Of a stretch of 64,000 bases of DNA, positions 29,672 through 59,799 are shown in pieces. Origin of the DNA: Candolleomyces eurysporus (Eukaryota > Basidiomycota > Agaricomycetes > Agaricales > Psathyrellaceae); contig JANBPK010001213.1 in NCBI GenBank assembly GCA_027579435.1, positions 1 to 64,000 on the forward strand. Direction: 5' to 3'. A program made the position numbers and the translations under genes. Under the pieces are notes generated by a model that was not told the origin of the DNA, ran no database searches, and was given only the letters and a program-made list of their open reading frames with translations. Each line of letters begins with the position of its first letter. Position 1 is the first letter of the stretch.

Positions 29672-31912
29672 ATGGACGACACTGAGTGGAAACGTATGGA
29701 TCGGGAGGGTGCAGTCGCTGGGACCCAAGTCGATAGGCTTTCAGAGGTACCTCTAGAGATCTTCTGCGAGGTACTGTTTCGATCTCGTTTAGATTTCTTT
29801 CATCCATACTGATGGTGCCGAATAGATCGCCAGCTGGGTGCATCCTATGGACCTCTTGCGTTTATCACAGACGTCTAAACAACTTAGACGGGTATTGATG
29901 AACCGACAGAATAGAGCTATCTGGACACAAACTATGGAGGCTCTCGAGGACTTTCCACCATGCCCCGAGGACTTGTCCGAACCTCGGTATACATATATAA
30001 TGTTTTCGAGGCATTGTCATGTACGTGCGCAGCCATGGTGGTTTAAATTTACTCAGAAGACGAAATCTGACTTCAATTTGCCCTCTTCAGCAATGCCTGG
30101 CGGATGAGGAACTTGTAAACCGAGGCGGCGTCGCTTTCCTGCGTATGGAGCTACGTGCTCGTCTGTGTGATAAATGTTGCACCGCTAGGTACTGTAGCTT
30201 TTCTTCGATTAATTCTTGGGGTGAGTGACTCATGATTTTGTATCCAGGCGCCAAGATTGGGACTACCTCCCGAAGAAAGTAGATAAAGCTCTGAAACCGC
30301 TAGTCCCCTCCGGCATGTGCGGTAAGTATGTGTCTTCCGTGGCTAAAAGATGAAGAACGTTATCCCCTCCTCAGGGCACGATGTCGAGACGGCCTTGGCG
30401 TTGCACGACCAGTACGACAAGCTCCAAGACCCTGCCGAGAAAGGGGTCTGGCTCAAGAACCAAACCGAGATTTGGGAGAATATAGTCAAGGTACACACAC
30501 CCCTTACAGTTCTACAGTCTGCTTCGCTAACGTCAAATTACAGCACTCAGATGCTTGTGGAAGATTTTTGGAGGCAGAAATCAAGAGAGAACAGGAGCGT
30601 GTAATATCACTTCAAAATAAGCGTAGAGCACAGTAAGATCTCATTGTTTCATTTGTGGACTTTGCGCTGATTAAGCCGCGAAGGGTTGCAGAGAAGCTGA
30701 AGGCCCTTGGTAAGATTTCGTGCTGACAACGACTTTGACAAGCGCTCGCCTTTCATTACATTTTGAAGGTTGGGCTGAGGAAATCGACATTCATTTGGGA
30801 GGCGCCAGGTTCTTATACCATCGATTGCTTTATGTGGGGGAAGAACTCAATGATACAGGTAACCCACCTTGACTCATGATCGTCCTCGCTACCGACTCAG
30901 ATTTGAAATAGATTGGGAGGAGATGCGACCCGTACTCGTCGCAGTCCTCACCAGGAGAAGGCAAGGCCGAATAAACAGGGAGAATGACTCAAAAATCCGA
31001 AAACGCGTCGGAAGTTGGTTGATGCTAGCCTACGATACTTTCGTCGCGTCACAACCCCCTTCAGCATGCCCCCCTCCACTTCTAGATGTCAGTTTCATTC
31101 CAGAGGTCATTTCCGCCTTGTGCTTTACGCCTCTTGATGAGCCTCTGCCGAAAGAGCTGACCGAAGCAGCTATCGCGCGTTTTCCTTCCTACGCTAAGGA
31201 GTGGAAGAGGGAGCGGGATCAAGAACTACTCGACATTGTTCGTCGAGCCTCTCCTTATGCGAACCAAGATGTTTCCGAAGACGTACTCCATCTCGCTTCT
31301 ACAATGTTCTTGTGCGAAGACTGCCACAAGTTTATCAGGTATCCATCTGTTATCAACCATCCATGTAACTTCGTCTCTAGCCTCAGGGTCGAGGTTCGAG
31401 CCCCAGGGATGAAGAGGCCTTGCGATTCTAAAACCAAGTCTTCAAGCGCCAAGTATTCTGTAAGAATTATCGAAGTCGAGAACGATTTAGCACGATATAT
31501 TGGAGACGGTATACGCTTGCAACGTTATGGCTCAGTGATTTGGGGTGGCTTTCACCACACTGTTTTCGACGAAATTAGGTACAAACATATAGTCAACACG
31601 CTTGACGCCCTCCAGTGGAGCCGCACGACGCTGTTGCAATTGTCGAATATGGAGGAAAAGGACCCGTATGTGGACCGCCTCCAGTGTCAGTGCTTTTCTC
31701 GTATGAACGGGAATTGGTCAGGAGGGAAAATAGCTTTGAAATGGAAGGAAGCCGTGAGTTTCTAGATACGTCTCCCACTCATCTCATCTGACAATTGTTT
31801 ACAGGTTCAGAGCTGTGGCGTGCATCGAGGGAAAAGGTCTGGAGCGCAATTCTTTGCGAAGCCAGAGTTTTCTGAAAATGAAGACATGGGTCCCACTGTA
31901 AGAAAAGGCTGA
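29672..31912 (+). CDS. F-box protein A (short form, without C-terminal C2H2 finger)
   Basis: About nine exons with consensus borders. The F-box is split by an intron after LSEVPLEIFCE and continues IASWVHPMDLLRLSQTSKQL; F-boxes bind Skp1 and recruit substrates to SCF ubiquitin ligases. Then PPCPEDLSEPRYTYIMFSRH, a Cys pair in LCDKCCTAR, a charged helical middle part with EREQ-rich text, and the conserved C-terminal half (INRENDSKIRKRV; CFTPLDEPLP) with a CxxC...HxC zinc-binding motif (FLCEDCHKFIRYPSVINHPC). The last exon reads VQSCGVHRGKRSGAQFFAK and stops at 31910-31912, where the minus-strand relatives continue into a zinc finger. Closest to gene B. Substrate unknown. Confidence 0.8.
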
Positions 31913-32177
31913 GTATCCGAACACAGGCCGCAGTAGTTTGATTTATTGGCGAAGTTGTGTTCAAATTTTATAGCTATAGAAGATATAATCTCGTCTCATT
32001 GACTTCCCTTCTGCTCTCAAAAACTGTGACTGTGAATTTAAAGCTGCTTCAACCAATTTGCCTCCGAGTCCGAGTCGAACCCAAAGTAACGGGCGCTTTG
32101 TCTCACGCCACGGGACGTGTCATAATCGGAACCGCGCGTGTGATCGCTCCAATATTGGTTCCAACTGAACTATCACC

Positions 32178-34464
32178 ATGGGCAAGCGAAACGGTCCTAC
32201 CAACAATGCTGGTTCTCGAGGATCCAAGAGGAAGCGCGTAAATTTGGAGGGAAAAGCCACTGAAACCCTGTCTACAGTCGAAATGCTGTCCGAATTACCT
32301 TTGGACATCTTCTGCGAGGTAATGGATTTGCTTTGGCTCAGATGCGTTTGAATCATACTGAGAGCTCGATAGATAGCCAGCTGGTTGCATCCTATGGATT
32401 TGCTGCACCTAGCGCAGACATCCAAGCTACTTAGACGGGTCATGTTGAGCCGAACTAACAGAGTCATTTGGACACGAAGCATGAAGGCTTTTGAAGACTT
32501 GCCGCCATGCCCTGAAGATTTAGCAGAGCCTCGATATGCGTACTTGATGTTCTCAAGGCATTGTCATGTAAGTGCCTCTGCGAAGACATGGCAATCGACT
32601 TTAGGATTGACACTGGGTTTCCGCGTTACAGGAATGTCTAGCTGATGAGCCAGTAACGACTATAGACCGATATGGCGAGACTTTCCTGCGCATGGAACTA
32701 CGCACTCGGCTGTGTCATCAATGTCGCACTGCTAGGTACAGTGCGCTTCCCTCGACCTACAAATAAGCAGCCAGTGACATGCTATGTTCAGGCACAAAAC
32801 ATGGAAAGATCTTCCGAAGAACGTAGATGAAGCACTCAAGCCGTTGGTCCCTCACTACGACGACCGCCAACGATGTGAGTATACATTGTCACTTACTACA
32901 TGGCTAGAGTAAGAACGTCATGTTTCTTCCCCAGATATAGGCATAAAGTGTGCTGTGCTGTATGATGTCGAGACCGCCTTGGCGTTGGACGCTCAGTACG
33001 ACCAGCTCCATAGCCCTTGCGACAAAGAGGCTTGGTTGCAGCGTCAAACCGAGATTCATGGGATGGCAGTCAAGGTGCATATATCTAACCTGCATTTCTC
33101 GAATCTGCCAATCTCACCCGCTCAAAGCACTCAAGCGCCTGCCAAAGATTCGTCGAGAATGAGTTGTACAAAGAGCAGCAATGTTTGATACGGCTTCGAG
33201 AGAAACGTAGAGAGCAGTAAGATACACTGTTTCATTTTTCTGAACTCTGGCTTACTCAAACGACTTCAGGGTTGCCGAGAAACTAAAGGCTCTGGGTGAG
33301 GTTCCTTGTTGATGATTACCCTGACAAGTGCATGCCGCTCATTACATGTCGTAGGCTGGACGAAAGAACTTGATTTCCTTGGAGGTATCAAGTCCCTATA
33401 CCATCCAGATCCGTTGCTTTCCGTTGCAGAAGAACTAAACGATCAAGGTACGCCCGCTCCAATCTACATGCGTACTTACCATTAATTCAAAATAGATTGG
33501 AATGAACTGCGACCCAAACTTGTTGCTCAGCTACGTCGCGCAAGAAAGGATGTGATCAACCAAGAGAATGAAACCCACATCCGAAACCGTGTTGAGCTCT
33601 GGCTCATACCAGCTTACAATGCCTTACTCGCTTCACATCCACCACAAGCATGTCTCCCCTCGCTCCTCGATGTTGGTCTTATTCCCGAGTTTCGTTCCGC
33701 CTTGTGCTCCACGCCTCTTGATCAACCCATGCCCACGGAGCTAACCAAAGCGGCCGTCGAGCGGCTTCCTTCCTATGCTCTAGAGTGGAAGAGCGAACGG
33801 GATCAGGAACTACTCGGTATCCTTCGCCAAGCCTCTCCTTATACGAACCAGGACGTTTCTGAAGACGCGCTTCACCTCGTTTCTACCATTTTCATGTGCG
33901 ACAGATGCTGCAAAGTGAACACGTATCCATCTGTTATCTCCCATTCATGCAATTTTACCTCCAACTTCTGGGTCGAGGTTCGAGCTCCGGGCGTGAAACG
34001 ACCCCGCGTTTATAAAGACATTGGATCTTCGTTCTCAACGAGCTCACACCCTGTCAAGGTTCAAGTCGAGGACGATCTAGCGCGGCACATCGGGGCAGCT
34101 GTATACAAAGCTAATCATGGCTCAAGACTTTGGTGTGGCTTTCGATACATCGTCTTCGATGAAGATAGGTATGAGCATATAGTCAACATGCTTGGCACTC
34201 TTCAGTGGAGTCGCAAGACGCTTTTGTCGGAGATGGAGGAAAGAAACCCGTATGTGGAATGCCTCTGCCAATGCTTTTCTCGTACGCAGGCGCATCGATC
34301 CGGACAGCAGGTGATCATGCAATGGAAGAGTGCGGTAAGTGTGTGTATCCTTCTTTTATTCCATGTTCTAACTGCAAATCTGCACGCAGGTCGAAAGCTG
34401 TAGGAGGCACAGAGGGGAAAGGTCGGGAGCACAATTCTTCGCCAAAGCAGAGGGTCCGAATTAG
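32178..34464 (+). CDS. F-box protein B (short form)
   Basis: Same exon plan as A, 265 bases downstream and in the same direction. It opens with a basic stretch (MGKRNGPTNNAGSRGSKRKR), then LSELPLDIFCE joined to IASWLHPMDLLHLAQTSKLL (F-box), PPCPEDLAEPRYAYLMFSRH, a Cys pair near LCHQCRTAR, the conserved C-terminal half and a CxxC...HxC motif (FMCDRCCKVNTYPSVISHSC). The last exon VESCRRHRGERSGAQFFAKA ends at 34462-34464. It is convergent with gene C, 123 bases away. Part of its last intron and last exon were copied to 38935 in a tandem duplication. A putative nuclear signal (KRKR) is visible; substrate unknown. Confidence 0.8.
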
Positions 34465-37400
34465 ATCACACGTCACGCGAAGGCAAAGGCACTTTGGTAC
34501 GGACTTGGCTCAGAGACAGTTATACAAGAGATGTACTTGTCGAGAGATACTATTACAGTGTGCACTACGGGGTCGATTCGTCCAGGCCTACGAGCTATCG
34601 TCTTCAAGGTCAACGTACCGCTCCCCCGAAGGCATATAATTCTTCCAAAGGTTCAACCCATTCACGTATGCCTTCAATCCATTCATGCCATCTGGATGCT
34701 CGACTCTGTGCCTGTGGTTACAAAAATTGTCAGCACCGTAAGAGTGACTGGCAGGGACGAGGTTATAGCAGTAATAGTAGTAATACTCACTCCAATGACA
34801 GATGGTGCTCCAAGGCATCTCGACTGAACCCTCCTTGAGCCATGCACATGAAGCAATCGAGGCGCATCATCCAAGCTGGCGGTTGCCTCGCTTGTTCGAC
34901 GGTCGTCGCTAGGACGAGGTTCTGCCCTTCGAGTTTTGCGAAGCATTCTGGGTGAGGTTCAGAGCGTTTGTGGCTCCCACATGATTGGATCTATACGAAA
35001 GCATCGTAAGCCACGAATCGCACAAAGCTAAAGAGAGGCGACGCGTACAGCTTTCATCCACCTAGCAGCCTTCCTCTTCTTCGTTACCACCATTTCCACT
35101 GGACGAATAGCCACCAGCTTCTTCCGAGTCTTCTTGCTCGAGCTACTACGAGTAATCGACCTCGTGATAGCACGAGGCTGGTTGGCCTGGACCCCAGTCT
35201 TAGCTGTAACCTCCTCGAAACACCGGCAAAGACACTCCACGTAAGGCTGCTTCTCTTCCATCTCCTCGACTGTAGTACTCGAACTCCACCCAAGCGCATC
35301 TAGCATAGCCAACATGTGTTGATGCGCCTTATCGTCAAACTTGACGCGTTTCATGCCCCTCCAAGTCCCCACAGAGTACTTCGTAAGCAACACGAGGGAA
35401 AAGTCGTCAGTGATACTTGGAACGTCTGGAATCTCGATTTCCTGCGGCACGATAGGTGTGGGCATATCATGAACAAAATCCTGGGGTTTGGGCTGCCATG
35501 ATTCGGCAAACAGACATCGGTGCACGAGGATGGAGGGGTAAGTGATTTTTTGGTTGCAATCGGCACAGTGGAAGATCGTAGAAGCGAGTGGAAGGACGGT
35601 GTCGGCCGATAGGTCACTTGCGGGAGTGGCCTTGTATGCAGAGGATTTCCGAACCACGCCGAGAACCTGATCTATCCTGTTCTTCCTCCATTCCTCCGCG
35701 AACGCAGGCAGTTGTGCGATGGCGTTTTCGAAGAGATCGACTGAGAGGTCTTGGTCGAGGGGGAGAGTGCACAGCGGTGTGCGGAAGGCTTCGGTGAGAC
35801 AGACTTGGTGGATCGATGGGAGGATAGTGTTGGGCGGTTGAGAAAAGAAGAAGGACGTGTACGCTGGTTTCACCCAAGTGTTTACGCGATTTATCATCGA
35901 GGTTCTGATTATATTTTTGAGCCGGACTTCTCTGGCCTTCTCCATCGAGACGATCATCCCCTTCTCTATTCCTTCCCATTCTACTCAGCATCGCTTGAGA
36001 AAAGCAGAATCTTGCGGGCACAGATAGATAGAGAGACGCACCTTCTTCAGTCAGCTCTTTCGCCGGGAATCCCCAGCTATATGCGTCGTAAGGGAGCTGC
36101 CCTTGAGTTATGTCGAGTTCTTCGCCCCAGCCTGCCAAGACCCCTTGTGTCAATACCGAAGAGATGATACACGTCAGGAAATGTCGCTCAGCTCACCCAA
36201 GCCTCTCAATTTTACTCTGATCCTGATACAAAAGTCAGCTAGCGGCTTCAAACACCCAGGAAGGCGAAGGAGTGCCTACTGTTCTCTGCGTTTCTCTCTC
36301 AGTGCTTCATTGTGTTGAGCTTCCCTTTCTCGGACTTTGGAGAAGTAGCGTTCGCAAGCAACGGCGTGCTATGTAGGCAAAATCAGTTAGGAACGCGAGC
36401 ATGAAATTCGGATTGCTCAGATAGACATACCTCTTCTTTCGCAAGCCAGACCTTTCGCTGCTCTTTCTTCCAAGCCTTCTTCGCTTCAGCTCCTTTGGTT
36501 TTCTTGTAGCATGCGTACAGCGAGACGGCCGTGTTCACATGGAATCTGGTACGCTTGTCTTTGACATGCTGAGGCTCTGTGAAAATGCGCTGTGGTCAAC
36601 CAAACAGCCAAATGCGATTCGAAAAATGAACGGGACTACCACGACGGCGCTTAAAGAATGATTGTGCCAGTTCGGCTTTCGTCAACCGATTCGTCGTTGC
36701 TGGAACGAACTCGGCGAGCGCGAGGGTGACCTTTTCGGGCAGTTCCTGCCAAAGTTTGAAACTGCGTTCCGTTTTGTCATCGGACTCGGATTGGGACAAT
36801 ATACGACACGCAATACGCACTTTTCAAGGCTACAAGCTCTGCATAACTGAGTTCGTGCTTCCAGGTAAAGGAGCAATGTCTCGTCCTCCCCGAGTTGTGA
36901 GAGTGTTCGAAGGCATTCCTGTATCGCGGCCCATTAGGCCCCAAGGCCTGACGTTGGTACTAAGGCATAATACTTACGTGGCAGTGGTTTGTGAACATCA
37001 AGTATGCATACTGAGGCTCCGAAAGATCGGTAGGGCACGGTGGGAGGTCCTCCACAGCCGACAGGGCATGAGTCCAGATGGACCTCGAAGCCCGGTTCAT
37101 TAGAAACTTTCTGAAAGACTTTGCAGTGCGTGCAAGCTGGAGCAAGTCAAGTGGAGGTAGGAGCTTGAACATCTGTGTAGTACCATGTTAGAGCGCGGGA
37201 GAGTATCTGAGATGGAGATACTGCAAGACCGAATCAGTACCTCGCAAAGGATGTCAAGAGGTAGGTCAACGAGCACGTCATGTTTGAGAGCGCTCCGAGA
37301 AGCACCTCGTATATCTTTATCCCTCGAACCACTCGGGTGGTCCTTTGGTGGGTTGAGCTTGCGAGTCTTTCGAGAAGACCCTTTCGCCATGGTGGTTGAA

Positions 37401-38934
37401 AGAAGAGTTTGTTATCACTCTCCGCAGACGGCTGGTCTGCTAATGACCCCGAGACTGTTATGACTGAATCCGAGTCCGTTCAACCCGACAGCAATGCCGG
37501 CACCGGAATCCACATGTGACCACAATCTGTGTAAGTCATGGAATCAATCAAGATGAGCTTTGTTGCTACTTATTCAGGTCAGGCAAACTAATACTACAAT
37601 GGAGGCGGTTAAGGCTTCACAAGTACGTACTACGGATTTGGCTCCAAGGTCTCGTTCGTGTCCTTCTTTAGTACCAGTAGTATGGTTTCCATTTTGAGTA
37701 TTGCTCTCAAGTCCAGATCGATTGTAGCTCCACTCCAGTAAAGACAATTTTCCAGGTTCTCCAAGTTCAACATACGGTTCTCGTTGATAGAAGTAGTTCC
37801 TCTGTAGTTTCACCTCGTTGACATAGGCCCTCAGCCCATTGATCCCATCCGGATGATCGACTTTGTGGCAATCGTCGAGTTCGTCAGTCAGCACAGTTTT
37901 GGAGTTGAGAATTGGGCAAGAGAAACGTGCACTCACTCCTGTATAAGGCGGTTTCCGGGACTCCAGCTACGGAAGCGGACGCGCATGCACATGAAAAATA
38001 CGGGGCCTGTTGAATAAGTCTGAACCTGACTCAACATTTTTTCTTTTTCCGTCTTGGCGAGAACGAGGTCTTGACCTTCGAGTTGTGGGAAGCTTTCTGG
38101 GTGAGGCTCTGAGTATTTGTGTTTCTTACACATCTAGATCTGTCGGATGGCCATGTCGTAAGCCACCAGTTGTGTTTCGTTAGGAGAAAGCTGGTGCTTA
38201 CCGCTTTGATCCACCTCGCAGTCTTCCTCTTCCGTGGAACCGATTCATCGGGAGTCGTGTTTTGTACTTGGGTCCTCCTCGTTGCCCTCTTGGACTTGAC
38301 AAGAGGTTTCTTAGCTCCGGGTTCGCAAAAGCATTGACAAACACATTCCACATAGGGCTGCTGTTCTTCCATCTCATCCACAGTGGTCTTCGTACGACTC
38401 AGACCAAGCGCATCTAGCATCGATAAAACATGCTGGTGCGCTTCATTGTCAAACTTGACACTCTCCAAACCCTTCCATATCGAGATATAATCCGATATTG
38501 AAAGGAAAATGAGTAAACTGTCGTTGGTAATGCTGGGCAGGTTAGGAATTTCAATTTCCTGGGGTGTTATCAGCATTGGCATGGCGTGGACGAAATCCTC
38601 GATTTTGGGCCGCCATAGTTCGGCAAACATGCATCGGTGTACAAGGACCAGAGTACGTCATTCTTTCGTTGCAGTTGCCGCAGTGGAAGACCGTAGAAGC
38701 AAGCGGGGAACTGTATCAGCTGTACTGTCACCTGCGGGAATGGCCTTGTCTGTGGGGGAATTTCGAACCAAGGTGAGGACTTGCTCGATCCTGTGGCTTC
38801 TCAATTCTTCTGCAATCACTGGCAGCTGTGCGATGGCGCTTTCGAAGAGATCGGCTGAAAGATCTTGGTCGACGGGTAGAGTGCAAAGCGTGCGGAAGGC
38901 ATCTGTCAGACAGACTTTGTGGAGCGTTGGAATG
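34372..38934. repeat. tandem duplication, copy 1 (4,563 bp)
   Basis: Begins in the last intron of gene B and runs through gene C into gene D. Copy 2 starts at 38935 with the same text (CTGCAAAT...GCACGCAG). The distance between matching points is 4,563 at the left edge and stays between 4,563 and 4,570 through the C/E pair. Confidence 0.85.
34588..37390 (-). CDS. F-box protein C (long form, C2H2 finger)
   Basis: Opens MAKGSSRKTRKLNPPKDH, then VLVDLPLDILCE joined to IFKLLPPLDLLQLARTAKSF (F-box split by an intron), PPCPTDLSEPQYAYLMF, a Cys-rich exon (LCRACSLEKC), PEKVTLALAEFVPATTNRL, a charged helical part with EREAQHNEALREKRREQ, WGEELDITQGQLPYDAYSWG, then a long exon with INRVNTWVKPAYTSFFFSQ and LCTLPLDQDL, a CxxC...HxC motif (FHCADCNQKITYPSILVHRC), PYVECLCRCF, a basic Arg/Ser region, IQSCGSHKRSEPHPECFAKL and a C2H2 finger (CFMC...H...H) whose last His lies beyond an intron (HRVEHPDGMNG). 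Stop at 34588 after LEDDSS. Near-identical to gene E. It likely serves as a Skp1 adaptor; the fingers suggest nucleic acid or protein binding. Confidence 0.8.
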
Positions 38935-38936
38935 CT
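37574..38936 (-). pseudogene. F-box gene D, 5'-truncated and frameshifted
   Basis: Only the C-terminal half of a long-form F-box gene, closest to gene F. It begins abruptly at 38934 within the text preceding IPTLHKVCLTDAF, where copy 2 of the 4,563-bp duplication is joined. The reading frame then breaks near 38650 (between TAATATKE and MFAELWRPKIEDF), a codon is missing in FRT-LCTLPV, and a deletion of about 115 bases near 37757 removes the normal end so the frame runs on to 37574. The zinc finger is also altered (FFMC in place of CFMC). It has no promoter or F-box of its own. Confidence 0.8.
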
Positions 38937-39135: not shown

Positions 39136-41954
39136 TCAATTCGTCCAGGCCCACGAGCCATCGTCTTCAAGATCAACATACCGCTCCCCCGAAGGCATAT
39201 AATTCCTCCAAAGGTTCAACCCATTCACGTATGCCTTCAATCCATTCATGCCATCTGGATGCTCGACTCTGTGCCTGTGGTTTCAAAGGTTGTCAGCACC
39301 GTAACAGTAACTCATAAGAGACAGGGACGAGGATATAACGGTAATCGTAGTAATACTCACTCCAATGACAAATGGCGCTCCAAGGCATCTCGACTGAACC
39401 CTCCTTGAGCCATGCACATAAAGCAATCGAGGCGCATCATCCAAGCTGGCGGTCGCCTCGCTTGTTCGACGGTCGTCGCTAGGACGAGGTTCTGCCCTTC
39501 GAGTTTTGCGAAGCATTCTGGGTGAGGTTCAGAGCGTTTGTGGCTCCCACATGATTGGATCTATACGAAAGCATCGTAAGCCACGAATCGCACAAAGCTA
39601 ATGAGAGGAAACACGTACAGCTTTCATCCACCTAGCAGCCTTCCTCTTTTTCGTTGCCACCATTTCTACTGGACGAATAGCCGCCGGCTTCTTCCGAGTC
39701 GTCTTGGTCGAGCTACGAGTAATCGACCTCGTAATCGCACGAGGCTGGTTGGCCTGGACCCCAGTCTTGACTGTAACCTCCTCAAAACACTGACAAAGAC
39801 ACTCCACGTAAGGCTGCTTCTCCTCCATCTCCTCGACTGTAGTGCTCGAACTCCACCCAAGCACATCTAGCATAGCCAACATATGTTTATGCGCTTTATC
39901 GTCAAACTTGACGCGTTTCATGCCCTTCCAAGTCCTCACAGAGTACTTCGTAGCGAATAAGAGGGAAAAGTCGTCAGTGATACTCGGAACGTCTGGAATC
40001 TCGATTTCCTGCGGTACGATAGATGTGGGCATATCATGAACAAAATCCTGGGGTTTGGGCTGCCATGATTCGGCGAACAGACATCGGTGCACGAGGATGG
40101 AGGGGTAAGTGATTTTTTGGTTGCAATCGGCACAGTGGAAGATCGTAGAAGCGAGTGGAAGGACGGTGTCGGCCGATACGTCACTTGCAGGAGTGGCCTT
40201 GTATGCAGAGGATTTCCGAACCACGCTGAGAACCTGCTCTATCCTGTTGTTCTTCCATTCCTCTGCGAACGCAGGCAGTTGTGCGATGGCGTTTTCGAAG
40301 AGATCGGCTGAGAGGTCTTGGTCGAGGGGGAGAGTACACAACGGTGTGCGGAAGGCTTCCGTGAGACAGACTTCGTGGATCGATGGGAGGATAGTGTTGG
40401 GCGGTTGAGAGAAGACGAAGGACGTGTATGCTGGTTTCGCCCAAGTGTTGATGCGATTTATCATCGACATTGTGATTATATTTTTGAGCCGGACTTCTCT
40501 GGTCTTCTCCATCGAGACGATCATCCCCTTCTCCATTTCTCCCCATTCTACTCATCATCACTTGAGAAAAGCAGAATCTTGCGGGCACAGATAGATATAG
40601 AAACGCACCTTCTTCAGTCAGCTCTTTCGCCGGGAATCCCCAGCTATATGCATCGTAAGGGAGCTGCCCTTGGGTTATGTCGAGTTCTTCGCCCCAGCCT
40701 GCCAAGACCCCTTGTGTCAATATCGAAGAGATGATACACGTCAGGAAATGTCGCTCAGCTCACCCAAGCCTCTCAATTTTACTCTGATCCTGATACAAAA
40801 GTCAGCTAGCGGCTTCAAACACCCAGGAAGGCGAAGGAGTGCCTACTGTTCTCTGCGTTTCTCTCTCAGTGCTTCATTGTGTTGAGCTTCCCTTTCTCGG
40901 ACTCTGGAGAAGTAGAGTTCGCAAGCAAAGGCGTGCTATGTAGGCAGAGTCAGTTGGGAACGCGAGCATAGAATTCGGATTGCCCAGACCGACATACCTC
41001 TTCTTTCGCAAGCCAGACCTTTCGCTGCTCTTCCTTCCAAGCCTTCTTCGCTTCAACTCCTTTGGTTTTCTTGTAGCATGCGTACAGTGAGAGGGCCGTG
41101 TTCACATGGAATCTGGTACGCTTGTCTTTAACATGCTGAGGCTCTATGAAAATGCGCTGTGGTCAACCAAACAGCCAAATGCGATTCGAGAGATGAACGG
41201 GACTACCACGGCGCTTAAAGTATGGTTGTGCCAGTTCGGCTTTCGTCAACCGATTCGTCGTTGCTGGAACGAACTCGGCGAGCGCGAGGGTGACCTTTTC
41301 GGGCAGTTCTTGCCAGCGTTTGAAACTGCGTTCCGTTTTGTCATCGGACTCGGACCTGGACGATATATGACACGCAATACGCACTGTTCAAGGCTACAAG
41401 CTCTGCACAACTGAGTTCGTGCTTCCAGGTAAAGGAGCAACGTCTCGTCCCCCCCGAGTTGTGAGAGTGGTCGAAGGCATTCCTGTATCGCGGCCCATTA
41501 GGCCCCAAGGCCTGACGCTGGTACCAAGGCATGATACTTACGTGGCAGTGGTTTGTGAATATCAAATATGCATACTGAGGCTCCGAAAGATCGGCAGGGC
41601 AGGGTGGGAGGTCCTCCACAGCGGATAGGGCATGAGTCCAGATGGACTTTGAAGCCCGGTTCATTAGAAACTTTCTGAAAGGCTTGGCAGTGCGGGCAAG
41701 CTGGAGCAAGTCAAGTGGAGGTAGGAGCTTGAACATCTGTGTAGCACCATGTTAGAGCGCTGGAGAGTATCTGGGGTGGAGATATTGCAAGACCGAATCA
41801 GTACCTCGCAAAGGATGTCAAGAGGTAGGTCAATGAGCACGTCATGTTTGAGAGCGCTCCGAGAAGCGCCTCGCGTATCTTTATCTCTCGAACCACTCGG
41901 GTGGTTCTTTGGTGGGTTGAGTTTGCGAGTCTTTCGAGAGGACCCTTTCACCAT
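39136..41954 (-). CDS. F-box protein E (long form), twin of C
   Basis: Same exons and motifs as gene C throughout: MAKGSSRKTRKLNPPKNH start (the ORF begins MVKG because the first codons read ATG-GTG), F-box LIDLPLDILCE / IFKLLPPLDLLQLARTAKPF, FHCADCNQKITYPSILVHRC, and the split C2H2 finger (CFMC..GGFSRDALERHL, then HRVEHPDG). The terminal codon differs: where C has LEDDSS and a TAG stop, E reads GSWAWTN and stops at 39136-39138, five residues later, by a TAG to TGG change. Several in-frame differences from C are conservative, so both copies look functional. Confidence 0.8.
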
Positions 41955-49103: not shown

Positions 49104-51896
49104 TCAAGCCCCATCTCCAAGTTCAACATACTGTTCCCACTCGGACAAGTGAACTCTCCGTAGTTTCGCCGCATTGACATAGTCTCTTAACCCATCGATC
49201 CCATCCGGATGATTGACTCTGTGGCTATTGTGAAGTGTATCAATTAGCACAATTCCGGGGATTAGAAGTGGGGGAGACAAATGCACACTCACTCGTGCAT
49301 AAGGTGGTTTTCCAGACCCTGGCGACGGAAGCTGGATTGCATGCACATAAAACAAACAGGGCGTGTCGATGAAGTCTCGCTCGCCGTTCTTTCTTTGGCT
49401 TCCATGGCGAGAACAAGGTCTTGACCTTCGAGTTTCGCAAAGTATTCTGGGCGAGGCTCTGGGAGTTTGTGTTTCTGACACTTCTGGAGCTGTTGGACAA
49501 CCACATCGTAAGCCATGGGTGGTGTTCCGTTAGGAGGAAGGCGGCCCTTACCGCTCTGAGCCAACTCGCGGCAGGCCTCTTCGGGGGAACGAATGCTGGT
49601 TGTAATTGGACCGGAGCTGGATTTGGTGTCCGACCGCTCCTGGTCAACATCCTGGTAGGCACGAAAGCGGGTCTCTTGGGCGGGGGTCGCCAAAAACATT
49701 GACAAAGACATTCTACATAGGGCTGGTTTGCTTCCATCTCGGCCACCGTGGTCTTGGTACGACTCAAGTCAAGTGCATCTAGCATTAACAAAGCATGTTG
49801 GTGCGCTTCATCGTCGAACTTGACAGTCCCCAAACCCTTGAAGATCGAAAGATAACTTAATGAATAGAGAAGGAGCGAAACATCGTTCGTGATGCTAGGC
49901 ACGTTGGGAATGTGGATTTCCTGAGGTGTTATCGGCGTTGGCATGTCGTAGACAAAATCTTCCATCTTGGGCTGCGACATTCCGACAAACAGACATTGGT
50001 GCACAAGGACCGAAGGGTACACGAGTCTTGCTTTGCAGCTGCCACAGTGGAAGACCGTAGAAGCGAGAGGGAGGACTGTATCAGCCGTGATGTCGTTCGC
50101 AGGAATGTCCTTATATGTAAGGGAGTTTCGAACTAAGGTGAGGACTTGCTCGATCCTACAGTTTCTCCATTCTTCTGCGAACGCTGGCAGTTGCGCGATG
50201 GCGCTTTCGAAGAGACCGGCTGAGAGGTCTCGGTCGAGGGGGAGNAGTGCATAGCGGTGTGCGGAAGGCATCTGTCAGACAGACTTCGGGGAGCGTTGGA
50301 ATGATGGTGTTGGGCGGTTGGGAGAAGAAGAAGGACGTGTATGCTGGCTTGACCCAAGTGTCGATGCGTTTGTTGAGTTGACTTCGGATATAGATTCTGA
50401 GACGGGACTCCCTCAGTCTCTCCATTAAGCCGACCACTTGATCCTTAATCGATTCCCATTCTGCCGAAGGTTTACCTAAATAAGTTATTTCGTATGACAA
50501 TGGGAAGAGGGGACGCACCCTCATCGGTCAATTCTACTGGAGATGAATAGGACCAGTGATTCATCTCATAAGGGAGTCGTCCTCCAATAAAATTGAGCTC
50601 CTCGGCCCACTCTGACAACGTTGAATGTGAACCGACAATGACTCTGTCGAGAAAACGACCGATATCGTACCCAAGTCTATTAATCTTTCTCGAATCCTGA
50701 CAACAAAGTCAGCATATCAATCCCCTCAGCAGCGTTGGGGACACCCTTACTGATCCATGCGCTTCACTCTCAGCTCCGCAACACGTATCTGTTCTCTTTG
50801 CTCTGTCTTTTCAAAATAATCTTCGCAAGCATTGGCGTGCTACACACAGAAAGACAGTCGTGATCAAGTGAGAAGATGGCGGATGGTATATCTATCGTTT
50901 GTGAGCACACCTCTTCTTTTGCGACCCAGAGCTTCCTCTGGTTCTCTATCCAAGCGTTCTTCGCTTTTTTCCCTTTGATTTTCTTGTGTTCTGCATGTAA
51001 TGCTAGAGCCGTGTTGACGTGAAATCTAGTTCGCTTGTCTTCCACCCGCTGAGGTTCTAAAAAGGCGCGATCGTTAACGGGAAACCCAAGTACACATGCA
51101 TATAGACAAGTCAAACCCACCCCTGCGTTTCCAACTATATTTTAATGAATTTTCCACTTCATTCTTTGTCAAATGATATGTTGTTGCCGGTACAAATTCT
51201 ACCAGCGAGAGTGAAACTTTCTCAGGGAGTTCATTCCAGCGATTGAAACTGCAACGAAGGTTGTAAGAATTAAGTCATCCGACAAGCGACACGATGCTGA
51301 AGTACGCACTGTTTGAGACTACACGCTCTGCATAACCGGGTTCGTGCTTCGAGATAGGGGAGCAACGCCTCGTCATCCTTCAGGAGTTCCGACAACGGTC
51401 GAAGACAGTCCTTGACAAGACAAGTGGGATTAGCGAAATTGCAGCCCGGCATTTTGCTTTCAATTCAACTCACATGGCAATTATCACAGAATATAAGATA
51501 GGCATACTGGGGCCCTGATAGGTCGTCAGGGCAGGGTGGGAGGTCCTCCACAGTGGATAGGACGGCGGTCCAGATAGAATTTGAAGCTCGGTTCATTAGA
51601 AACTTTCTGAACGACTTCGCAGTGCGCGCAAGCTGGAGCAAATCAAGCGGGGATAAGAGCCCGAATATCTGTGTGACATGTCAGAACACACAAGAAACTC
51701 TTGGGATGCGGATGCTGCAAGCCTGAGTCAGTACCTCGCAAAGGATGTCCAGAGGTTGGTTAACGAGCACGTTCGGGTCATGCCTAAGAGTGCTCTGGGA
51801 AGCGCCCGGGGTATCGTTATTTTTCGCATCACTTGGGTGGCCATGGTTCTTTGGTGGGTCGAGTTTGCGAGTCTTTCGAGAAGACCCTTTCGCCAT
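49104..51896 (-). CDS. F-box protein H (long form), near twin of I
   Basis: Opens MAKGSSRKTRKLDPPKNHGH, F-box VLVNQPLDILCE / IFGLLSPLDLLQLARTAKSF, LPPCPDDLSGPQYAYLIF, LCRACSLKQC, PEKVSLSLVEFVPATTYHL, then KRIDTWVKPAYTSFFFSQ, LCTLPLDRDL, C2HC motif FHCGSCKARLVYPSVLVHQC, PYVECLCQCF, a Pro/Arg-rich linker, CQKHKLPEPRPEYFAKLEGQ and the split C2H2 finger (CFMCMQSSFRRQGLENHL, then HRVNHPDG). The F-box has Gln where the others have Leu (VNQPLDI). The N at 50245 interrupts TPLCT-LPLDRD; deleting it restores the frame. Stop at 49104 after VELGDGA. Confidence 0.8.
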
Positions 51897-52303: not shown

Positions 52304-52515
52304 CACAACGGTGACAATACTTAGGCTCGACGCTGTCGGCATGAAGTATTGACAATGTACATAGCACCGTATATCTCTCGACATCATAAACAGTGTCGTA
52401 GAGTCACCTTCATGACGATCTCCAGTCATAATTGGGGAACGTCACTTATAGCACACGATGGAAAAGGACTCGTAAGTAAGCATGTTACAAGGTTCGAAAG
52501 CCCTCGAAGCTCAGG

Positions 52516-53250
52516 TCAATCATAAGTATCAGGATGAATATTCATCCACGCGTCAGCTCTACACTCATCGATACCAGTCAAGATGTCAACCTTCTCGAAG
52601 AAATGTTCGATAAACTCAAGCAAGGGGTGCGCATGTTCGGATACCTCTTGAAGCTTACCTTCAGCTGTTCCTGAAGTCCAAAGCAGATGCATGCACCCGC
52701 ATTTTCCGGGCGTCGAGTGAGGAATGGTGGTCAAGACCAACCCCGAGATGCCGCATGACGTCGAGCAGTGAATTACAGCTTTCGCTCTGCGGGAAGGCAA
52801 GTTGACGATTGGAGCTGACGATCGAGCATTCTCGAGGATGATTTTCTGAGCGCTGGCTCAGGCTCAATGCCCTAGCTTGGATTCTAGGTTGAATCATGCT
52901 GCATGGTTGCAAAACGCTGAGTTTGCAAGCAGCACATTTGGTCAATTGAAACTTCTGATAGGCTCCCAACGCAACGGTTCATCTTCTGACCTAAATGGCT
53001 TACCTTGCGGGTATCGCCAATCAAAGAAGTCCAATGCGAGGAAGTCAGAGAGGTAGCGAGCTTCGTTTAGTGTGTACCGCCGTCTTTCGCACACTCACGT
53101 TTGGACCGTGTTGCCATGACGGAGATGATATCCTTGACTTTAAGCCATTCATGATTTAGTACGACTGGAACAGGGTTGCGGGATATATTTTCTCTGCAAG
53201 ATGAGTTCGAAGTGCCGATAGATAGTATCACACCGAATATGTATGCCAAC
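52516..53250 (-). CDS. unrecognised gene in the island, probably spliced
   Basis: The last exon is open for about 115 codons, from an AG acceptor near 52855 through IILENARSSAPIVNLPSRRA, HCSTSCGISGLVLTTIPH and LLEFIEHFFEKVDILTGIDE to a TGA at 52516-52518. Upstream on the same strand YTLNEARYLSDFLALDFFDW is open before a good GTAAGC donor. Composition is coding-like in both. I do not recognise the family; no signal peptide, zinc motif or membrane helix is evident. The middle exons could not be joined, so it may be damaged. Confidence 0.4.
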
Positions 53251-53367
53251 GTATCACTGATTCTAGAAGTGAAAGAAGGATCATTTAAGCTTTGGTAGCG
53301 AGAGTCAAGCTTTGAACGAGAGAGGATATCAGATTTTTATCGCACCTGGCTTCCAAAGATGAAGAAG

Positions 53368-53637
53368 TCAGAACCCTGTTATCCCTCTCCACGAAGTGCC
53401 CAAATACCCGCCTGTCAGTTTAACGATCGTTGGCGGGACCCGGCCTTCCAAAGCTGATGATTTGAAGCAAAGATCTTTCAGGCAGCATGCCAAACACATT
53501 GTTATGGCACCGTCACGGGAGAAGATCCCATAAATTCCAAAATTCCGTTTCTTCAGATACCGAAAACCATCTAAATATAGTACAATGAGGCGAACGAAAG
53601 GAAGGCTGAGACAAACTTGAACACAAGGAATCGACAC
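53368..53637 (-). pseudogene. possible decayed DUF6533-type fragment
   Basis: The frame contains FRYLKKRNFGIYGIFSRDGA, which resembles the helix end and YRDG motif of the DUF6533 genes (FWIGYRKYAG...FYRDGLAY; KHRHTRS...FYRDGLVF). The rest of the frame shows no further family motif, and it lies directly downstream of the intact copy. Chance resemblance remains possible. Confidence 0.3.
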
Positions 53638-53678
53638 ACAAGCTCGCCAAGTGCACGGTCAGGAACTACGACAAGGTC

Positions 53679-55289
53679 TCATCGTTTGGAAGACATGTCC
53701 CGCAGGTCAAAGAATGAGGTATTGTGTCCATTCGTGGATGGCCTTCGTCCTTGAAATGACATAGACGTGTGTGCAAACAGTGCGTAGCCTGTCGTATACC
53801 GCTCGTCAAAGCTGTGTCCGTGTTCTTGAGTGTACGACTCTTGTCGTAGGTGGAGAATCATTCGACTCGCGAGCATCGAATGAATGACACGCTGGGGTCT
53901 GGGAAGACGCCATCAGTCAATTTCGAACCAGGGTAGCATGGTCAACTCACATCGCGAACAACGTCCTATTAGCAGGCTGTCGTTGAAACTTTGTCAGCGA
54001 CCGTGGAGCTCTCACAGGAATTAGAAGCACGCACGGGAAGAGATGCGAGCATCGCAATGTTGACCACAGACGACGCTATGTACGGTGTAAGTGACCGTCA
54101 CTGCGCAGAAACACGAAACTCACCAGTGAGGAACAGGAAGAAAACCAACCCATCTCGATAGAAAATCTTCACAAGAGGGCTCCGTGTATGCCGATGCTTC
54201 ATAAAACCAATATAGAGCATCACGAGCGTGATCACTAGTACCCTAGATGAGCGAAACCCGCGCAAAAAAGGAGATTTGATTCGCTCACAGGTTTCGTTCG
54301 CCATCAGTAAAGCGAAGGAAATAGCTGCATATAGGGGGTTTGCGGCCACTGGTACACAAGCCACGTATTGAGGGACGGGTGAGGGTGCCCCTGGGGAACG
54401 TTCTATAGTGAGATCTCCGATCCATTCACAGCGTATTGTCGTCACTCACATCGGAATGAGGCTAGGAAAGGTCCAATGAGGGCAAAAATGGTGAGTTGTA
54501 CGGCGAAGAACTGTACTATGAGCCACCAGCGGAAGAAAGTGCTCTGTCTTGATAAGGCGTAGAGGCGAATGAAAATGACAGCTAAACCAAGCAGAGGTAA
54601 GTTCGATTATGATAAGTGAGCTGCTGAGTAACCTGCGTGCCTTCTGACATTCCGAGCGATATGATAAGGCCCACTAGTGTGCGTCGAGCGTAAGAAAGCG
54701 ACGCTAATGATATCTGGCCCACAAACCTGAGCTACCAAAGTATGAGATCCGACACGTCTACGAAGGGAGTAGTTTCGAAGTTAGACGCAGTGGGCCAAGT
54801 CAGAGTGAAGCTTCTAGGGCAAACCTCAACGTCGGGAACCTCAATGTCTGTTGACGTTGTGTTAATGGAGCGTCTTACATCTTAAACATGAAAAGACTCA
54901 CACATGTAGCTGAATATGATGTCGATTGGGAAGTACCGACTGAAGAGGTAGAGGAACTTGACCAGGTTCCATTGAGCTGGCCAGATTACCTCCACTTCAA
55001 AAGGTAGGGTATGTAGCCAATCTGCGATCTACCGAACATCGTTAACTGAACAAGACACACTCTCCTCCAAGAGGTGCTCATAACTTACCCATGTAGTGAC
55101 TACAATGTCTAGTGGAAGTCATGGCTGATTCAAAAAAGGTTTCCTTAGCACAGGTGTCAGCGCATGCTCACTGTGAGCGTGCTGCGTAGCGACAAAATGA
55201 GTGAGCAGGTAAGGAGCAGCTGGGCAACAACGACGTACTCTAGCTATGATCTTGTTTCTGGTTGAGCTGATGAAAACCTCAACATCCAT
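53679..55289 (-). CDS. DUF6533-type multi-pass membrane protein, second copy
   Basis: Start ATG at 55289 (MDVEVFISSTRNKIIA). Small exons follow: DIVVTTW, DWLHTLPFEVEVIWPAQWN, LVKFLYLFSRYFPIDIIFSY (the DUF6533 signature), then further helices, SFALLMANET, VLVITLVMLYIGFMKHRHTR, KIFYRDGLVFFLFLT, VVNIAMLASLP, and PQRVIHSMLASRMILHLRQE. The order and motifs match the gene at 6249-7978, although the two proteins are clearly diverged. The tail after LRQE is polar and ends at 53679. It lies in the island inside the F-box array. Membrane location is inferred from the helices; function is unknown. Confidence 0.75.
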
Positions 55290-56432
55290 GGTCTCTGAAC
55301 CCTGTCTGAGATCGTACGGGGATGTGTCCCCNTCTGGAATGGCAGAGCACAGGTAAAGAGTCAGTAAGAACCAAGCATTCCGTCAGATATGATAGCTCCT
55401 CGCCCGTTAAGTACGCCTTAGTACTTTGTCCCACCAATAGCAGTTTTCGAATCCTCACAACGTGGATTATACTGGTAAGCATTTGGTCCGTATTGATCAT
55501 CATAAGCACACTGACGTGATGGCGACGTGGAATCGTGCAGAACGGGGCCCATGGGTGACGGAGGGAAGGCTCTTCGAAGTCTTCTCGTTGGTGAATCCAA
55601 GGGTTATCATGTGATGGTTTTCCGCTATTTAATGAAGAGATGCAAACCAGCCTACATCTTGGGACACCTTTGATGAAAATTTGATGAAACAAACGCAATC
55701 TCTCATCCGGCGTCATTCTACTCGGGTATCTCCTAGGTAGATCTCCTTCCCCTGATGACCATCAGTAACTCCATCTGTGGTCATGTTTCCGCGGTGACCT
55801 CGAGACGAGCACACGATCAATTCAATAGAAGCAATTTAAATGTAGGACACAACAACCGAGCCCGTCGAAGTCAAAATTCCAGAAGCGGTGAGGAACGTTA
55901 TCTCAAAACTTATTCATCTGATTCTCAAGAATATCATCATCATCCTTCCGCTCTCACCAAGTCAGGAGACCAGCTGGCCAGTTGAGCGTAATGGGGGGGG
56001 GACTAGGAACCTTACACAAGCTGTACAACGACGTATGTACCTAAAATGCCACAGCTTCCTAATCATTTGTCTACATCGTCCACAGCTCAGGCTTTTCCTG
56101 TGGAACATTGCTACATTTGAGAGGTGATAGTTGAGCCTACAGGTATTCACCGATACACGGGATGGCTTCTCTCCCCTCATGGAAAAGAGCACCTCGTATT
56201 CGTGCCACCTGATGCAAATTTGTCCAACCCTCGAGACATTCTTACCATACCACGATCCGCCTCCTCCCACATCCACCTCCAGCATGCTGTGTTTGGGGTC
56301 TAATGGAAAAGTGCAACTCACCGTAGCCCGTTAGTTTCCGTGTATGTCTTTGTTCCCGGGACGAAGAGTATCACCCCGCTCCTGTAAAATTCTGATCACA
56401 CTAGAGATAACTCTATCTTATTGCCCTCTTCT
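55290..56432. other. right part of the island, unresolved coding remains
   Basis: A minus-strand frame of 145 codons (55279-55716, with an N at 55332) starts at an ATG but matches nothing I know. On the + strand near 56150-56290 the text GWLLSPHGKEHLVFVPPDAN, LSNPRDILTIPRS and LQHAVFG recalls the tail block common in agaric NACHT/WD40 proteins, which have W-I-P-P-like text in this position. The frame breaks right after AVFG, and no NACHT or WD40 unit is visible, so at most it is a fragment. Confidence 0.3.
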
Positions 56433-56871
56433 TTGCGAGTCTTTCTAGAAGACCCTTTCTCCATGGTGGATGAAAGAAGAGTTTATTATCACTCTCCACG
56501 GAATGACTTGCCTGTTACATCTATATCTATTGAACCCGACAGCGATGCCGGAATTGGGGCTGTACACGTTGACTATGCCCTGGTTAGCAAGACGACGGGC
56601 CCACAGATCTAGAAAGCAGAGACGATCGGACATACATCTCAAGAGCTGGTAATAAACTGACATCTTCTAGCTGTACTTGTGCAAATCGAAAGCTGTAGGA
56701 AGCGCCGAGGGGAAAGCTATGGCGTACAAATTCTGTGAAGATAACAGAAGAACCACACGAGAGGGTAAGGATTCACAACGGCGGATTCGGCTCCTTGGTC
56801 TGCTTGTTCTCGTACTTCCTCAGTAACACCAGCGTTCAGCGTAGATTGCTCTAAAGCTCGGATTCCTCGTC
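56433..56871. repeat. 439-bp direct repeat, right copy, flanking the island
   Basis: Matches 51865-52303 at both ends with one constant offset. It contains a headless piece of F-box exon 1 (minus strand, ending at an intact CCATGG), a promoter and the spacer with a fossil exon. After 56871 the text continues as a normal array spacer (GCTCCACTCCAGTAAAACC), which the left copy lacks. Confidence 0.85.
56686..56730 (+). pseudogene. fossil terminal exon of an A/B-type F-box gene
   Basis: Same text as at 52118-52160, carried in the right copy of the 439-bp repeat. Confidence 0.55.
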
Positions 56872-57016
56872 GCTCCACTCCAGTAAAACCATTTTTCAGG
56901 ACCAATCCCAGGGACTTGCCAACTCACATATATCAGCATCCGTCGACACATGTGCCCGTAAAATCCAGCGTAAAGATCTACAAAATTTGAATCTAAGACT
57001 GGTCACCGCGGTACTC

Positions 57017-59799
57017 CTAAGCCCCATCTCCGAGTTCAACATACTGTTCCCACTCGGACAAGTAGACTCTCCGTAGTTTCGCTGCATTAACATAGTCTCT
57101 CAACCCATCAATCCCATCCGGATGATTGACTCCGTGGCTATTGTTAAGTGTATCAATTAGCACAGTTCCGGTGATTAGAAGTGGGGGAGACAAATGCACA
57201 CTCACTCGTACAGAAGGTGGTTTTCTAGACCCTGGCGACGGAAGCTGTAATGCATGCACATCAAACAAACAGGGCGTGTCGACGAAGTCTCTCCCGACGC
57301 TTTTTCCTTGGCTTCCATAGCGAGAACAAGGTCTTGGCCTTCGAGTTTCGCAAAGCATTCTGGGCGAGGCTCTGGGAGTTTGTGTTTCTGACACTTCTGG
57401 AGCTGTTGGATAGCCACGTCGTAAGCCATGGGCAGTGTTCCGTTAGGAGGAAAGGCGGTCCTTACCGCTCTGAGCCAACTCGCGGCAGGCCTCTTCGGGG
57501 GAACGAATGCTGGTGGTAATTGGACCGGAGCTGGATTTGGTGCCCGACCGCTCCTGGTCAACATCCTGGTAGGCACGAAAGCGGGTCTCTTGGCCGCGGG
57601 TGACCAAAAACATTGACAAAGACATTCTACATAGGGCTGGTTTGCTTCCATCTCGGCCACCGTGGTCTTGGTACGACTCAAGTCAAGTGCATCTAGCATC
57701 AGCAAAGCATGTTGGTGCGCTTCATCGTCAAACTTGACAGTTCCCAAACCCTTGAATATCGAAAAATAACCTATTGAATGGATAAGGAGCGAAACATCGT
57801 TTGTGATGCTAGGCACGTTGGGAATGTGGATTTCCTGAGGTGTTATCGGTGTTGGCATGTCGTAGGCAAAATCTTTGATTTTGGGGCCCGATGCTCCCAT
57901 AAACAGACATTGGTGCACAAGAACCGAAGGGTACGCGAGTCTTTCTTTGCAGTTGCCGCAGCGGAAGACCGTCGAAGCGAGCGGGAGGACTGTGTCAGCC
58001 GTAATGTCGTTCGCAGGAATGTCCTTATATGTGGGGGAGTTTCGAACTAAGGTGAGGACTTGCTCGATCCTACAGTTTCTCCATTCCTCTGCGAACGCTG
58101 GCAGTTGCGCGATGGCGGTTTCGAAGAGATCGGCTGAGAGGTCTTGGTCGAGGGGTAGAGTGCATAACGGTGTGCGGAAGGCTTCTGTTAGACAGACTTC
58201 GGGGAGCGTTGGAATGATGGTGTTGGGCGGTTGGGAGAAGAAGAAGGACGCGTATGCTGGCTTGACCCAAGTGTCGATGCGTTGGTTGAGTCGCTTTGGA
58301 ATACAGTTTTTGAGGCGGGACTCCCTGAATCTCTCCATTAAGCCGACCGCTTGATCCTTAATCGATTCCCATTCTGCCGAACGTTTACCTAAATAAGTTA
58401 TTTCGTATGACAATGGGAAGAGGGGACGCACCCTCATCGGTCATTTCTCCTGGAGATGAATAGGACCAGTGATTCATCTCATAAGGGAGCCGTCCTCCAA
58501 GAAAATTGAGCTCCTCGGCCCACCCTGACAACGTTGAATGTGAACCGACAATGACTCTGTCGAGAAAACCACCGATATCGTACCCGAGTCTATTAATCTA
58601 TCCCGAATCCTGACAACAAAGTCAGCATATCGGTCCCCTCAGCAGCGTTGGGAACATCCTTACTGATCCATGCGCTGCACTCTCAGCTCTGCATCACGTA
58701 TTTGTGCTCTTTGCTCTGTCTTTTTAAAATAGTCTTCGCAAGCATTGGCATGCTACACAGAGAATGACAGTCGTGATCAAGTGAGAAGATGGCGGATGAT
58801 AAATCTATCGTTTGTGAGCACACCTCTTCTTTTGCGACCCAGAGCTTCCTCTGGTTCTCCATCCAAGCATTCTTCGCTTTTTTNCCCTTTGATTTTCTTG
58901 TATTCTTCATGTAATGCCAGAGCCGTGTTGACGTGAAATCTAGTTCGTTTGTCTTCCAGCCGCTGAGGTTCTAGAAAGGCGCGATCGTTCACGGGAAACT
59001 CGAGTACACATAGAGACATGTCAAACCCACCACTGTGTTTCCAACTATATTTAAATGAATTTTTCACTTCATTCTTCGTCAAATGATATGTTGCTGCTGG
59101 TACAAATTCTACCAGCGAGAGTGAAACTTTCTCAGGGAGTTCATTCCAGCGATTGAAACTGCAATGAAGGTTGTAAGAATTAAGTCATCCGACAAGCGAC
59201 ACGATGCTGGAGTACGCACTGTTTGAGACTACACGCTCTGCATAACCGGGTTCGTGCTTCGAGATAGGGGAGCAACGCTTCGTCATCCTTCAGGAGTTCC
59301 GACAACGGTCGAAGACAGTCCTTGACAAGACAAGTGGGATTAGCGAAATTGCAGCCCGGCATTTTGCTTTCAATTCAACTCACATGGCAATTATTACAGA
59401 ATATAAGATAGGCATACTGGGGCCCTGATAGGTCGTCAGGGCAGGGTGGGAGGTCCTCCACAGTGGATAGGACGGCGGTCCAGATGGACTTTGAAGCCCG
59501 GTTCATTAGAAACTTTCTGAATGACTTCGCCGTGCGCGCAAGCTGGAGCAAGTCAAGCGGGGATAAGAGCCCGAATATCTGTGTGACATGTCAGGACACT
59601 CGAGAAACTCTGGGATGGGGATACTGCAAGACCGAGTCAGTACCTCGCAAAGGATGTCCAGAGGTAGATCAACGAGCACGTTCGAGTCATGTCTAAAAGT
59701 GCTCTGAGAAGCGCCCGGGGTATCTTTATCTTTCGAATCATTCGGGTCGTTCTTTGGTGGGTCGAGTTTGCGAGTCTTTCGGGAAGACCCTTTCGTCAT
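57017..59799 (-). CDS. F-box protein I (long form), near twin of H
   Basis: Opens MTKGSSRKTRKLDPPKND, F-box VLVDLPLDILCE / IFGLLSPLDLLQLARTAKSF, LPPCPDDLSGPQYAYLIF, LCRACSLKQC, PEKVSLSLVEFVPAATYHL, then NQRIDTWVKPAYASFFFSQ, LCTLPLDQDL, C2HC motif FRCGNCKERLAYPSVLVHQC, PYVECLCQCF, a Pro/Arg-rich linker, CQKHKLPEPRPECFAKLEGQ and the split finger (CLMCMHYSFRRQGLENHL, then HGVNHPDG). The N at 58884, next to a T run, breaks IKGKKAKNAWMENQRK; deleting it restores it. In the finger the second CxxC reads CLMC. Stop at 57017 after VELGDGA. It ends the array. Confidence 0.8.

What the first reader, a model, noticed from the sequence alone, without database searches (positions are those of the whole stretch)
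29672..59799. Tandem array of F-box/zinc-finger genes with a ~3.3-kb period
Eight full-length F-box genes and one truncated copy lie side by side. Start codons of the minus-strand genes are spaced E-F 3,294, F-G 3,336, G-H 3,312 and H-I 7,903; the last minus the 4,568-bp island offset gives 3,335. So gene plus spacer was copied as one unit. Lineage-specific F-box expansions are known in Agaricomycetes; a single array with two zinc motifs per protein is a good candidate for a rapidly evolving substrate-recognition set, for example in self/non-self or defence. That role is inference.
Basis: partly seen in the sequence, partly recalled or inferred. Interest (0 to 1): 0.8.

Follow-up and report, generated by a model that had tools for sequence, protein, structure and literature searches.

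The report
Tandem F-box gene array in mushroom
A mushroom chromosome carries a row of copied genes for proteins that probably choose which cell proteins are destroyed; the row is real, but it looks like an ordinary case of a widely expanded fungal gene family and a similar row exists in a sister species.

Summary
The array is real and sits where stated. The window is part of an 86,198-bp contig of Candolleomyces eurysporus (Psathyrellaceae). It holds eight full-length F-box genes (A, B on +; C, E, F, G, H, I on -) and one truncated copy (D). The four stated start-codon spacings are exact. Corrections: three more members (J, K, L; to about 73.8 kb) lie past the window end, beyond a conserved protein kinase gene. 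D is the 3' end of F, carried in a 4.56-kb tandem duplication. A second relic (the start of a lost gene) lies at the island's edge. The C/E-L type proteins have four Cys/His sets that look like zinc sites (one weaker), not two. C. aberdarensis has counterparts of A, C/E, F, G and H/I as consecutively numbered genes on one contig, so most of the array predates that species split; the C/E and H/I pairs look C. eurysporus-specific. Codon tests show purifying selection (omega about 0.38), looser toward the C-terminus, without significant positive selection. Most likely these are SCF substrate receptors (inferred; an F-box is supported by profile and predicted structure). I found no support for a self/non-self or defence role. 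New member of a known kind.

The parts
29672..31867 (+). Gene A: F-box gene, 10 exons in the model (last exon end uncertain), no C-terminal C2H2 site found; orthologue of C. aberdarensis g10281
32178..34464 (+). Gene B: F-box gene, paralogue of A, same as deposited H1R20_g12497; no C. aberdarensis orthologue among the 6 hits
34588..37390 (-). Gene C: F-box/zinc gene, 11 exons, 722 aa; young duplicate of E
37757..38934 (-). D: truncated F-type copy (from within exon 9 to near the 3' end), frame broken; ends at the duplication junction 38934/38935
34372..38934 (.). Tandem duplication block [B tail - C - D], copy of 38935-43645 [B tail' - E - 3' part of F], 91-94% identical
39136..41954 (-). Gene E: F-box/zinc gene, 11 exons; C and E together are co-orthologous to C. 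aberdarensis g10282
42453..45248 (-). Gene F: F-box/zinc gene, 11 exons, orthologue of g10283; frame uncertain only at N 42833
45816..48584 (-). Gene G: F-box/zinc gene, 11 exons, deposited in part as H1R20_g12501; probable counterpart of g10284 (unresolved in the tree); mosaic between F-like and H/I-like sequence
49104..51896 (-). Gene H: F-box/zinc gene, 11 exons; frame uncertain only at N 50245; young duplicate pair with I
52304..56431 (.). Island between H and I: diverged copy (71-82%) of DNA on contig C1065 and others; no Pfam hit in 4 stretches tried
56432..56871 (-). Relic of a lost H-type gene: its first 33 coding bases (56432-56464) plus upstream spacer, 94.5% identical to 51864-52303
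57017..59799 (-). Gene I: F-box/zinc gene, 11 exons; frame uncertain only at N 58884; with H co-orthologous to g10285
60475..63516 (+). Protein kinase gene (PF00069) flanking the array; beyond it the contig continues with F-box genes J, K, L (about 64.6-73.8 kb, outside the window)

Best explanation
This is a tandem array, at least as old as the split of two Candolleomyces species, of a large Agaricomycete F-box family. Each C/E-L type gene encodes a protein of about 720 residues: a short basic N-terminal tail, an F-box, a C4 set directly behind it, a long helical middle part, a C2HC set, a CxC...CxxH set and a C-terminal C2H2 set. Most likely the F-box docks the protein on Skp1 of an SCF (Skp1-Cul1) ubiquitin ligase and the helical/zinc part holds the substrate, so the array is a set of substrate receptors with related specificities. 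It grew by unequal exchange between gene-plus-spacer units (E/C with the F end, H/I), with gene loss and probably some gene conversion (G), and is kept under purifying selection. Shown: gene structure, F-box by profile and predicted fold, Cys/His conservation, duplication blocks, counterparts in C. aberdarensis, omega below 1. Inferred: Skp1 binding, ubiquitin-ligase activity, metal binding, substrate role of the C-terminal half, any physiological role.
For: F-box by profile, by PDB sequence profile (FBXO31, E 0.0012, residues 45-95 of the profile) and by predicted structure against Skp1-bound F-boxes. Skp1-family matches at 2 places and cullin matches on 4 contigs in the same genome. All four residues of sets 1 and 2 in 10 of 10 contig genes compared, set 4 in 8 of 8 C/E-L type genes; in the 42-row homologue alignment, which includes five of these same genes, the two set-4 histidines in 33 of 33 rows with a letter. 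Same exon phases. C. aberdarensis g10281-g10286 on one contig. Duplication junction and spacer homology. omega 0.376.
Confidence: 0.82

Rival explanations
1. The array is a rapidly diversifying recognition set (self/non-self, mycovirus or transposon defence): copies are held because new C-terminal specificities are favoured, as proposed for nematode F-box families.
For: Copy-number turnover relative to C. aberdarensis (C/D, H/I, lost relic, g10286 without a one-to-one counterpart). Mean omega by 30-residue block 0.55-0.89 over 571-722 against 0.25-0.33 over 31-150. Mosaic gene G. The neighbouring kinase is 96% identical to its C. aberdarensis relative over the 58% of the query aligned, the array genes only 75-86% in their best stretches.
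Against: M1a against M2a not significant, no site above 0.8. A higher C-terminal omega is also what relaxed constraint gives. Most members have counterparts in the other species. One kinase is a poor rate baseline.
Confidence: 0.12
2. Neutral copy-number drift: tandem F-box genes gained and lost without a selected function beyond the ancestral one, with several copies on the way to pseudogenes. (Not exclusive of the SCF role.)
For: D and the 56432 relic are dead copies. Plant F-box genes are described as under genomic drift (PMC7829749, abstract start in listing); nematode ones as tandemly expanding with some loss (PMC8665587, passages).
Against: All six minus-strand full-length genes keep the 11-exon structure, the Cys/His sets and, Ns apart, open frames; pairwise omega is 0.21-0.50 over ten pairs, 0.36 and 0.43 in the young pairs.
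Confidence: 0.2
3. The proteins act mainly as nuclear C2H2 zinc-finger regulators that use the F-box outside the SCF.
For: Conserved C-terminal C2H2 set, basic N-terminal tail (sequence), weak PDB profile hits of that stretch to zinc-finger proteins (E 0.015-0.17). A fungal F-box protein acting as a transcriptional coactivator is in print (PMC11750091, title and abstract start in listing).
Against: A single C2H2 finger rarely binds DNA alone (recalled); none was found in A and B.
Confidence: 0.1

Closest known systems
Deposited Candolleomyces proteins: EST38_g10281 to g10286 (C. aberdarensis) and H1R20_g12497, g12498, g12501, g12503, g12505, g12506 (C. eurysporus)
   Same: Same family; the C. 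eurysporus records are genes B, C, G, I, K and L themselves
   Different: Deposited as 'hypothetical protein'; several models are partial or mis-spliced; C. aberdarensis shows one C/E-type gene and an extra member (g10286) where C. eurysporus has C+E and H+I
Large F-box complement of Agaricomycetes (210 annotated F-box genes in Flammulina filiformis, 80 developmentally expressed; PMC7567395, passages)
   Same: Class-wide numerous F-box genes; distant homologues of this family in other Agaricomycetes
   Different: No array or such Cys/His architecture is described in the passages I read
Tandemly expanded F-box families of Caenorhabditis (PMC8665587, passages)
   Same: Tandem duplication, purifying selection on the F-box, looser C-terminal half
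   Different: Different C-terminal domains (FBA2, FTH) in the passages read; the worm study reports C-terminal dN/dS peaks above 1.5, here the site test is not significant

Membership tests
F-box protein (SCF substrate receptor) | F-box domain by profile | tested here: met
   3 of 5 proteins above the PF00646 cut-off (H, A, B), 2 just below (F, E); deposited P0001 (gene G), P0008 (L) and P0009 (K) carry PF00646 and PF12937
F-box protein (SCF substrate receptor) | F-box fold as in Skp1 complexes | tested here: met
F-box protein (SCF substrate receptor) | binds Skp1 and Cul1, ubiquitinates a substrate | not testable with these tools
   Skp1-family and cullin matches are present in the genome
Tandem gene array | head-to-tail paralogues with copied spacers | tested here: met
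   the spacer upstream of I is an exception
C2H2 zinc-finger protein | C-x2-C-x12-H-x4-H | tested here: met
   the four residues in 8 of 8 C/E-L type genes; not found downstream of A and B. Metal binding not tested
Positively selected recognition family | class of codons with omega>1 | tested here: not met
   M2a over M1a 2dlnL 4.55, p about 0.10; low power with 8 sequences, and mosaicism can mislead it either way

The most novel reading that the evidence does not exclude
The array is a recombining bank of SCF receptors: unequal exchange and gene conversion between 3.3-kb units (as in mosaic gene G) keep producing new C-terminal combinations, giving each mushroom strain its own set of degradation targets, with an allorecognition or anti-element role.
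Probability: 0.08. Interest if true: 0.65.

Novelty: new member of a known kind. Interest (0 to 1): 0.3.

Why it matters
Mushroom-forming fungi have large numbers of F-box genes whose substrates are mostly unknown (recalled). This locus is a compact case with one-to-one counterparts in a sister species and species-specific duplicates side by side, which makes it a convenient place to ask which part of such a receptor diverges after duplication.

Tried and rejected
Recent species-specific burst of the whole array: rejected, because the tree places A, C+E, F+D and H+I each with a C. aberdarensis gene. G and g10284 are unresolved there, and the C/E pair itself has support 91/86, below the tree tool's mark; its duplication block is the better evidence.

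Positive selection: tested by pairwise NG86 and site classes written by me; not significant. The codon set used 8 genes (C, E, F, G, H, I, K, L); A, B, J and D were left out as too distant or broken, and 693 gap-free codon columns were kept. Of the regional pairwise values (5 pairs by 8 regions) three pass 1: F/G 1.46 and G/H 1.06 in the N-terminal tail and G/H 1.03 at the C-terminus, resting on 2, 4 and 15 synonymous differences; I do not read them as selection. The three-class model M3 fits a class with omega 1.46 (17% of sites), but it is not a test for positive selection.

Second haplotype of the array: a DNA search with window 8000-13000 found itself and only short pieces at 68-80%; contig stretch 74001-83000 matched C124 at 93% over 6 kb and C494 in pieces at 76-93%. 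Whether C494 (two L-type genes) is an allele or a paralogous place is unresolved; its best stretches are 90-94% identical but not collinear.

Island content: four stretches (three from related copies, one from the window) had no Pfam match.

Literature: 8 searches; no title or abstract start shown describes this array. Passages only were seen of PMC7567395, PMC8893723, PMC12786890, PMC8665587, PMC3602538 and PMC12881547; other papers as search listings only.
Full report
What it is. The window is the first 64,000 bases of an 86,198-bp contig. A deposited protein, H1R20_g12501 of Candolleomyces eurysporus on a contig of the same length, is 99% identical over 97% of my gene G query, and further deposited proteins of that contig are array members; C. 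eurysporus belongs to the Psathyrellaceae, Agaricales.

Check of the observation. A self-comparison shows blocks of 3-4 kb repeated through 34.4-59.9 kb. I built spliced gene models with a splice-aware aligner of my own, which allows only GT or GC donors and AG acceptors. C, E, F, G, H, I have 11 exons of nearly constant size (about 150, 195, 100, 125, 146, 89, 26, 93, 920, 200, 118 bases) and, with the single N in F, H and I set aside, the same phases; K and L beyond the window have the same structure; A and B share the nine intron phases but end early in my models. The stated spacings are exact. The only frame breaks in F, H and I lie at or within 5 bases of a single N, so I treat these genes as probably intact.

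Extent. The large exon of G finds 56 matches in the assembly, which I merged by hand to 52 places on 19 contigs, 10 of the contigs with two or more; the tool calls such counts lower bounds, some places are fragments, and some may be second haplotypes. On this contig there are 12 places: A to I in the window, and J, K, L at about 64.6-73.8 kb behind a protein kinase gene. J is a distant relative whose 3' part I could not model cleanly. A genome scan with the F-box profile itself listed 85 places, none of them on this contig: an intron cuts the F-box of these genes.

How the array grew. 34372-38934 is a tandem copy of 38935-43645 (93.6% and 91% identical in its two parts): it carries the tail of B, a whole gene (C, copy of E) and the end of F, which is D. 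The broken exon of D abuts the B tail at 38934/38935. H and I are a second young pair. Left of I, 56432-56871 is 94.5% identical to the start and upstream region of H; the simplest reading is that a third H-type gene once began there and its body is gone, with the island 52304-56431 in its place. An insertion flanked by a 440-bp duplication would leave the same pattern. The island has diverged copies on C1065, C1142 and C1098 and no Pfam match in the four stretches tried. Spacers of F, G, H and the relic are homologous over their length (69-95%); the one upstream of I is not. Gene G is mosaic: of 450 informative sites, 33% in the first part (to about base 1124 of the unit) agree with F against 55% in the rest, a contrast not reached in 1000 permutations, which ignore linkage; this suggests old conversion or exchange.

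Age. In a protein tree of 25 rows (17 of 22 inner branches pass the tool's support mark), A pairs with C. aberdarensis g10281, C+E with g10282, F+D with g10283, H+I with g10285; g10286 is sister to H+I+g10285; G and g10284 lie unresolved beside the F group. The C. aberdarensis genes are numbered 10281-10286 and lie on one 34,655-bp contig; I saw no coordinates or strands, so 'same order' rests on the numbering. A kinase (g3623, 96% identical over the 58% of the query aligned) and an L-type gene (g3621) lie together on another of its contigs; whether the two contigs adjoin is unknown. So most of the array is at least as old as the split of these two species. Best-stretch identity of array genes to their counterparts is 75-86%; E against g10282 gives 72% over a deposited model that lacks part of the gene, and g10286 gives 69-71% to H and I.

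Selection. Pairwise dN/dS is 0.21-0.50 over ten pairs. With eight genes and 693 codons, one omega is 0.376; M2a over M1a gains 2dlnL 4.55 (p about 0.10) and no site has posterior above 0.8; mean omega (M3) by 30-residue blocks is 0.25-0.33 over residues 31-150, 0.26-0.62 over 151-570 and 0.55-0.89 over 571-722. This is constraint that loosens toward the C-terminus, not demonstrated adaptive change.

Interpretation. The best reading is a family of SCF substrate receptors amplified in tandem, one of several clusters in this genome. F-box genes are numerous in Agaricomycetes and many change during fruiting (210 annotated, 80 developmentally expressed in Flammulina filiformis, PMC7567395, passages); [quoted passage not shown] Tandem expansion with looser C-termini is also the pattern in Caenorhabditis (PMC8665587, passages). 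I found nothing that ties this array to self/non-self recognition or defence. The finding is sound, and its kind is known.

Noticed in passing
52304-56431: Island between H and I: 71-82% copies on C1065 (at least two), C1142 and C1098, conserved protein-like pieces on the minus strand, no frame over 160 codons and no Pfam match in 4 stretches; perhaps a decayed multi-copy gene or element.
   Followed up: partly
60475-63516: Protein kinase gene, 96% identical over the aligned 58% to C. aberdarensis g3623; a Coprinopsis cinerea relative is named CAMK/CAMKL/GIN4. Conserved anchor inside the F-box cluster.
   Followed up: yes
L031 (contig stretch 74001-84000): Part of this stretch matches contig C124 at 93% over 6 kb, so the assembly may hold a second haplotype in places; C494 carries two L-type F-box genes, about 91% identical to each other.
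   Followed up: partly
42833, 50245, 58884: The window has 15 single Ns. Of the six I looked at in context, these three lie at the only frame breaks of F, H and I, two of them beside T runs; gene models from this assembly need care at Ns.
   Followed up: partly
46086, 46089, 46128 (gene G): Three Ns fall in exon 10 of gene G, so its residues there are unsure; the deposited protein P0001 stops before this exon.
   Followed up: no
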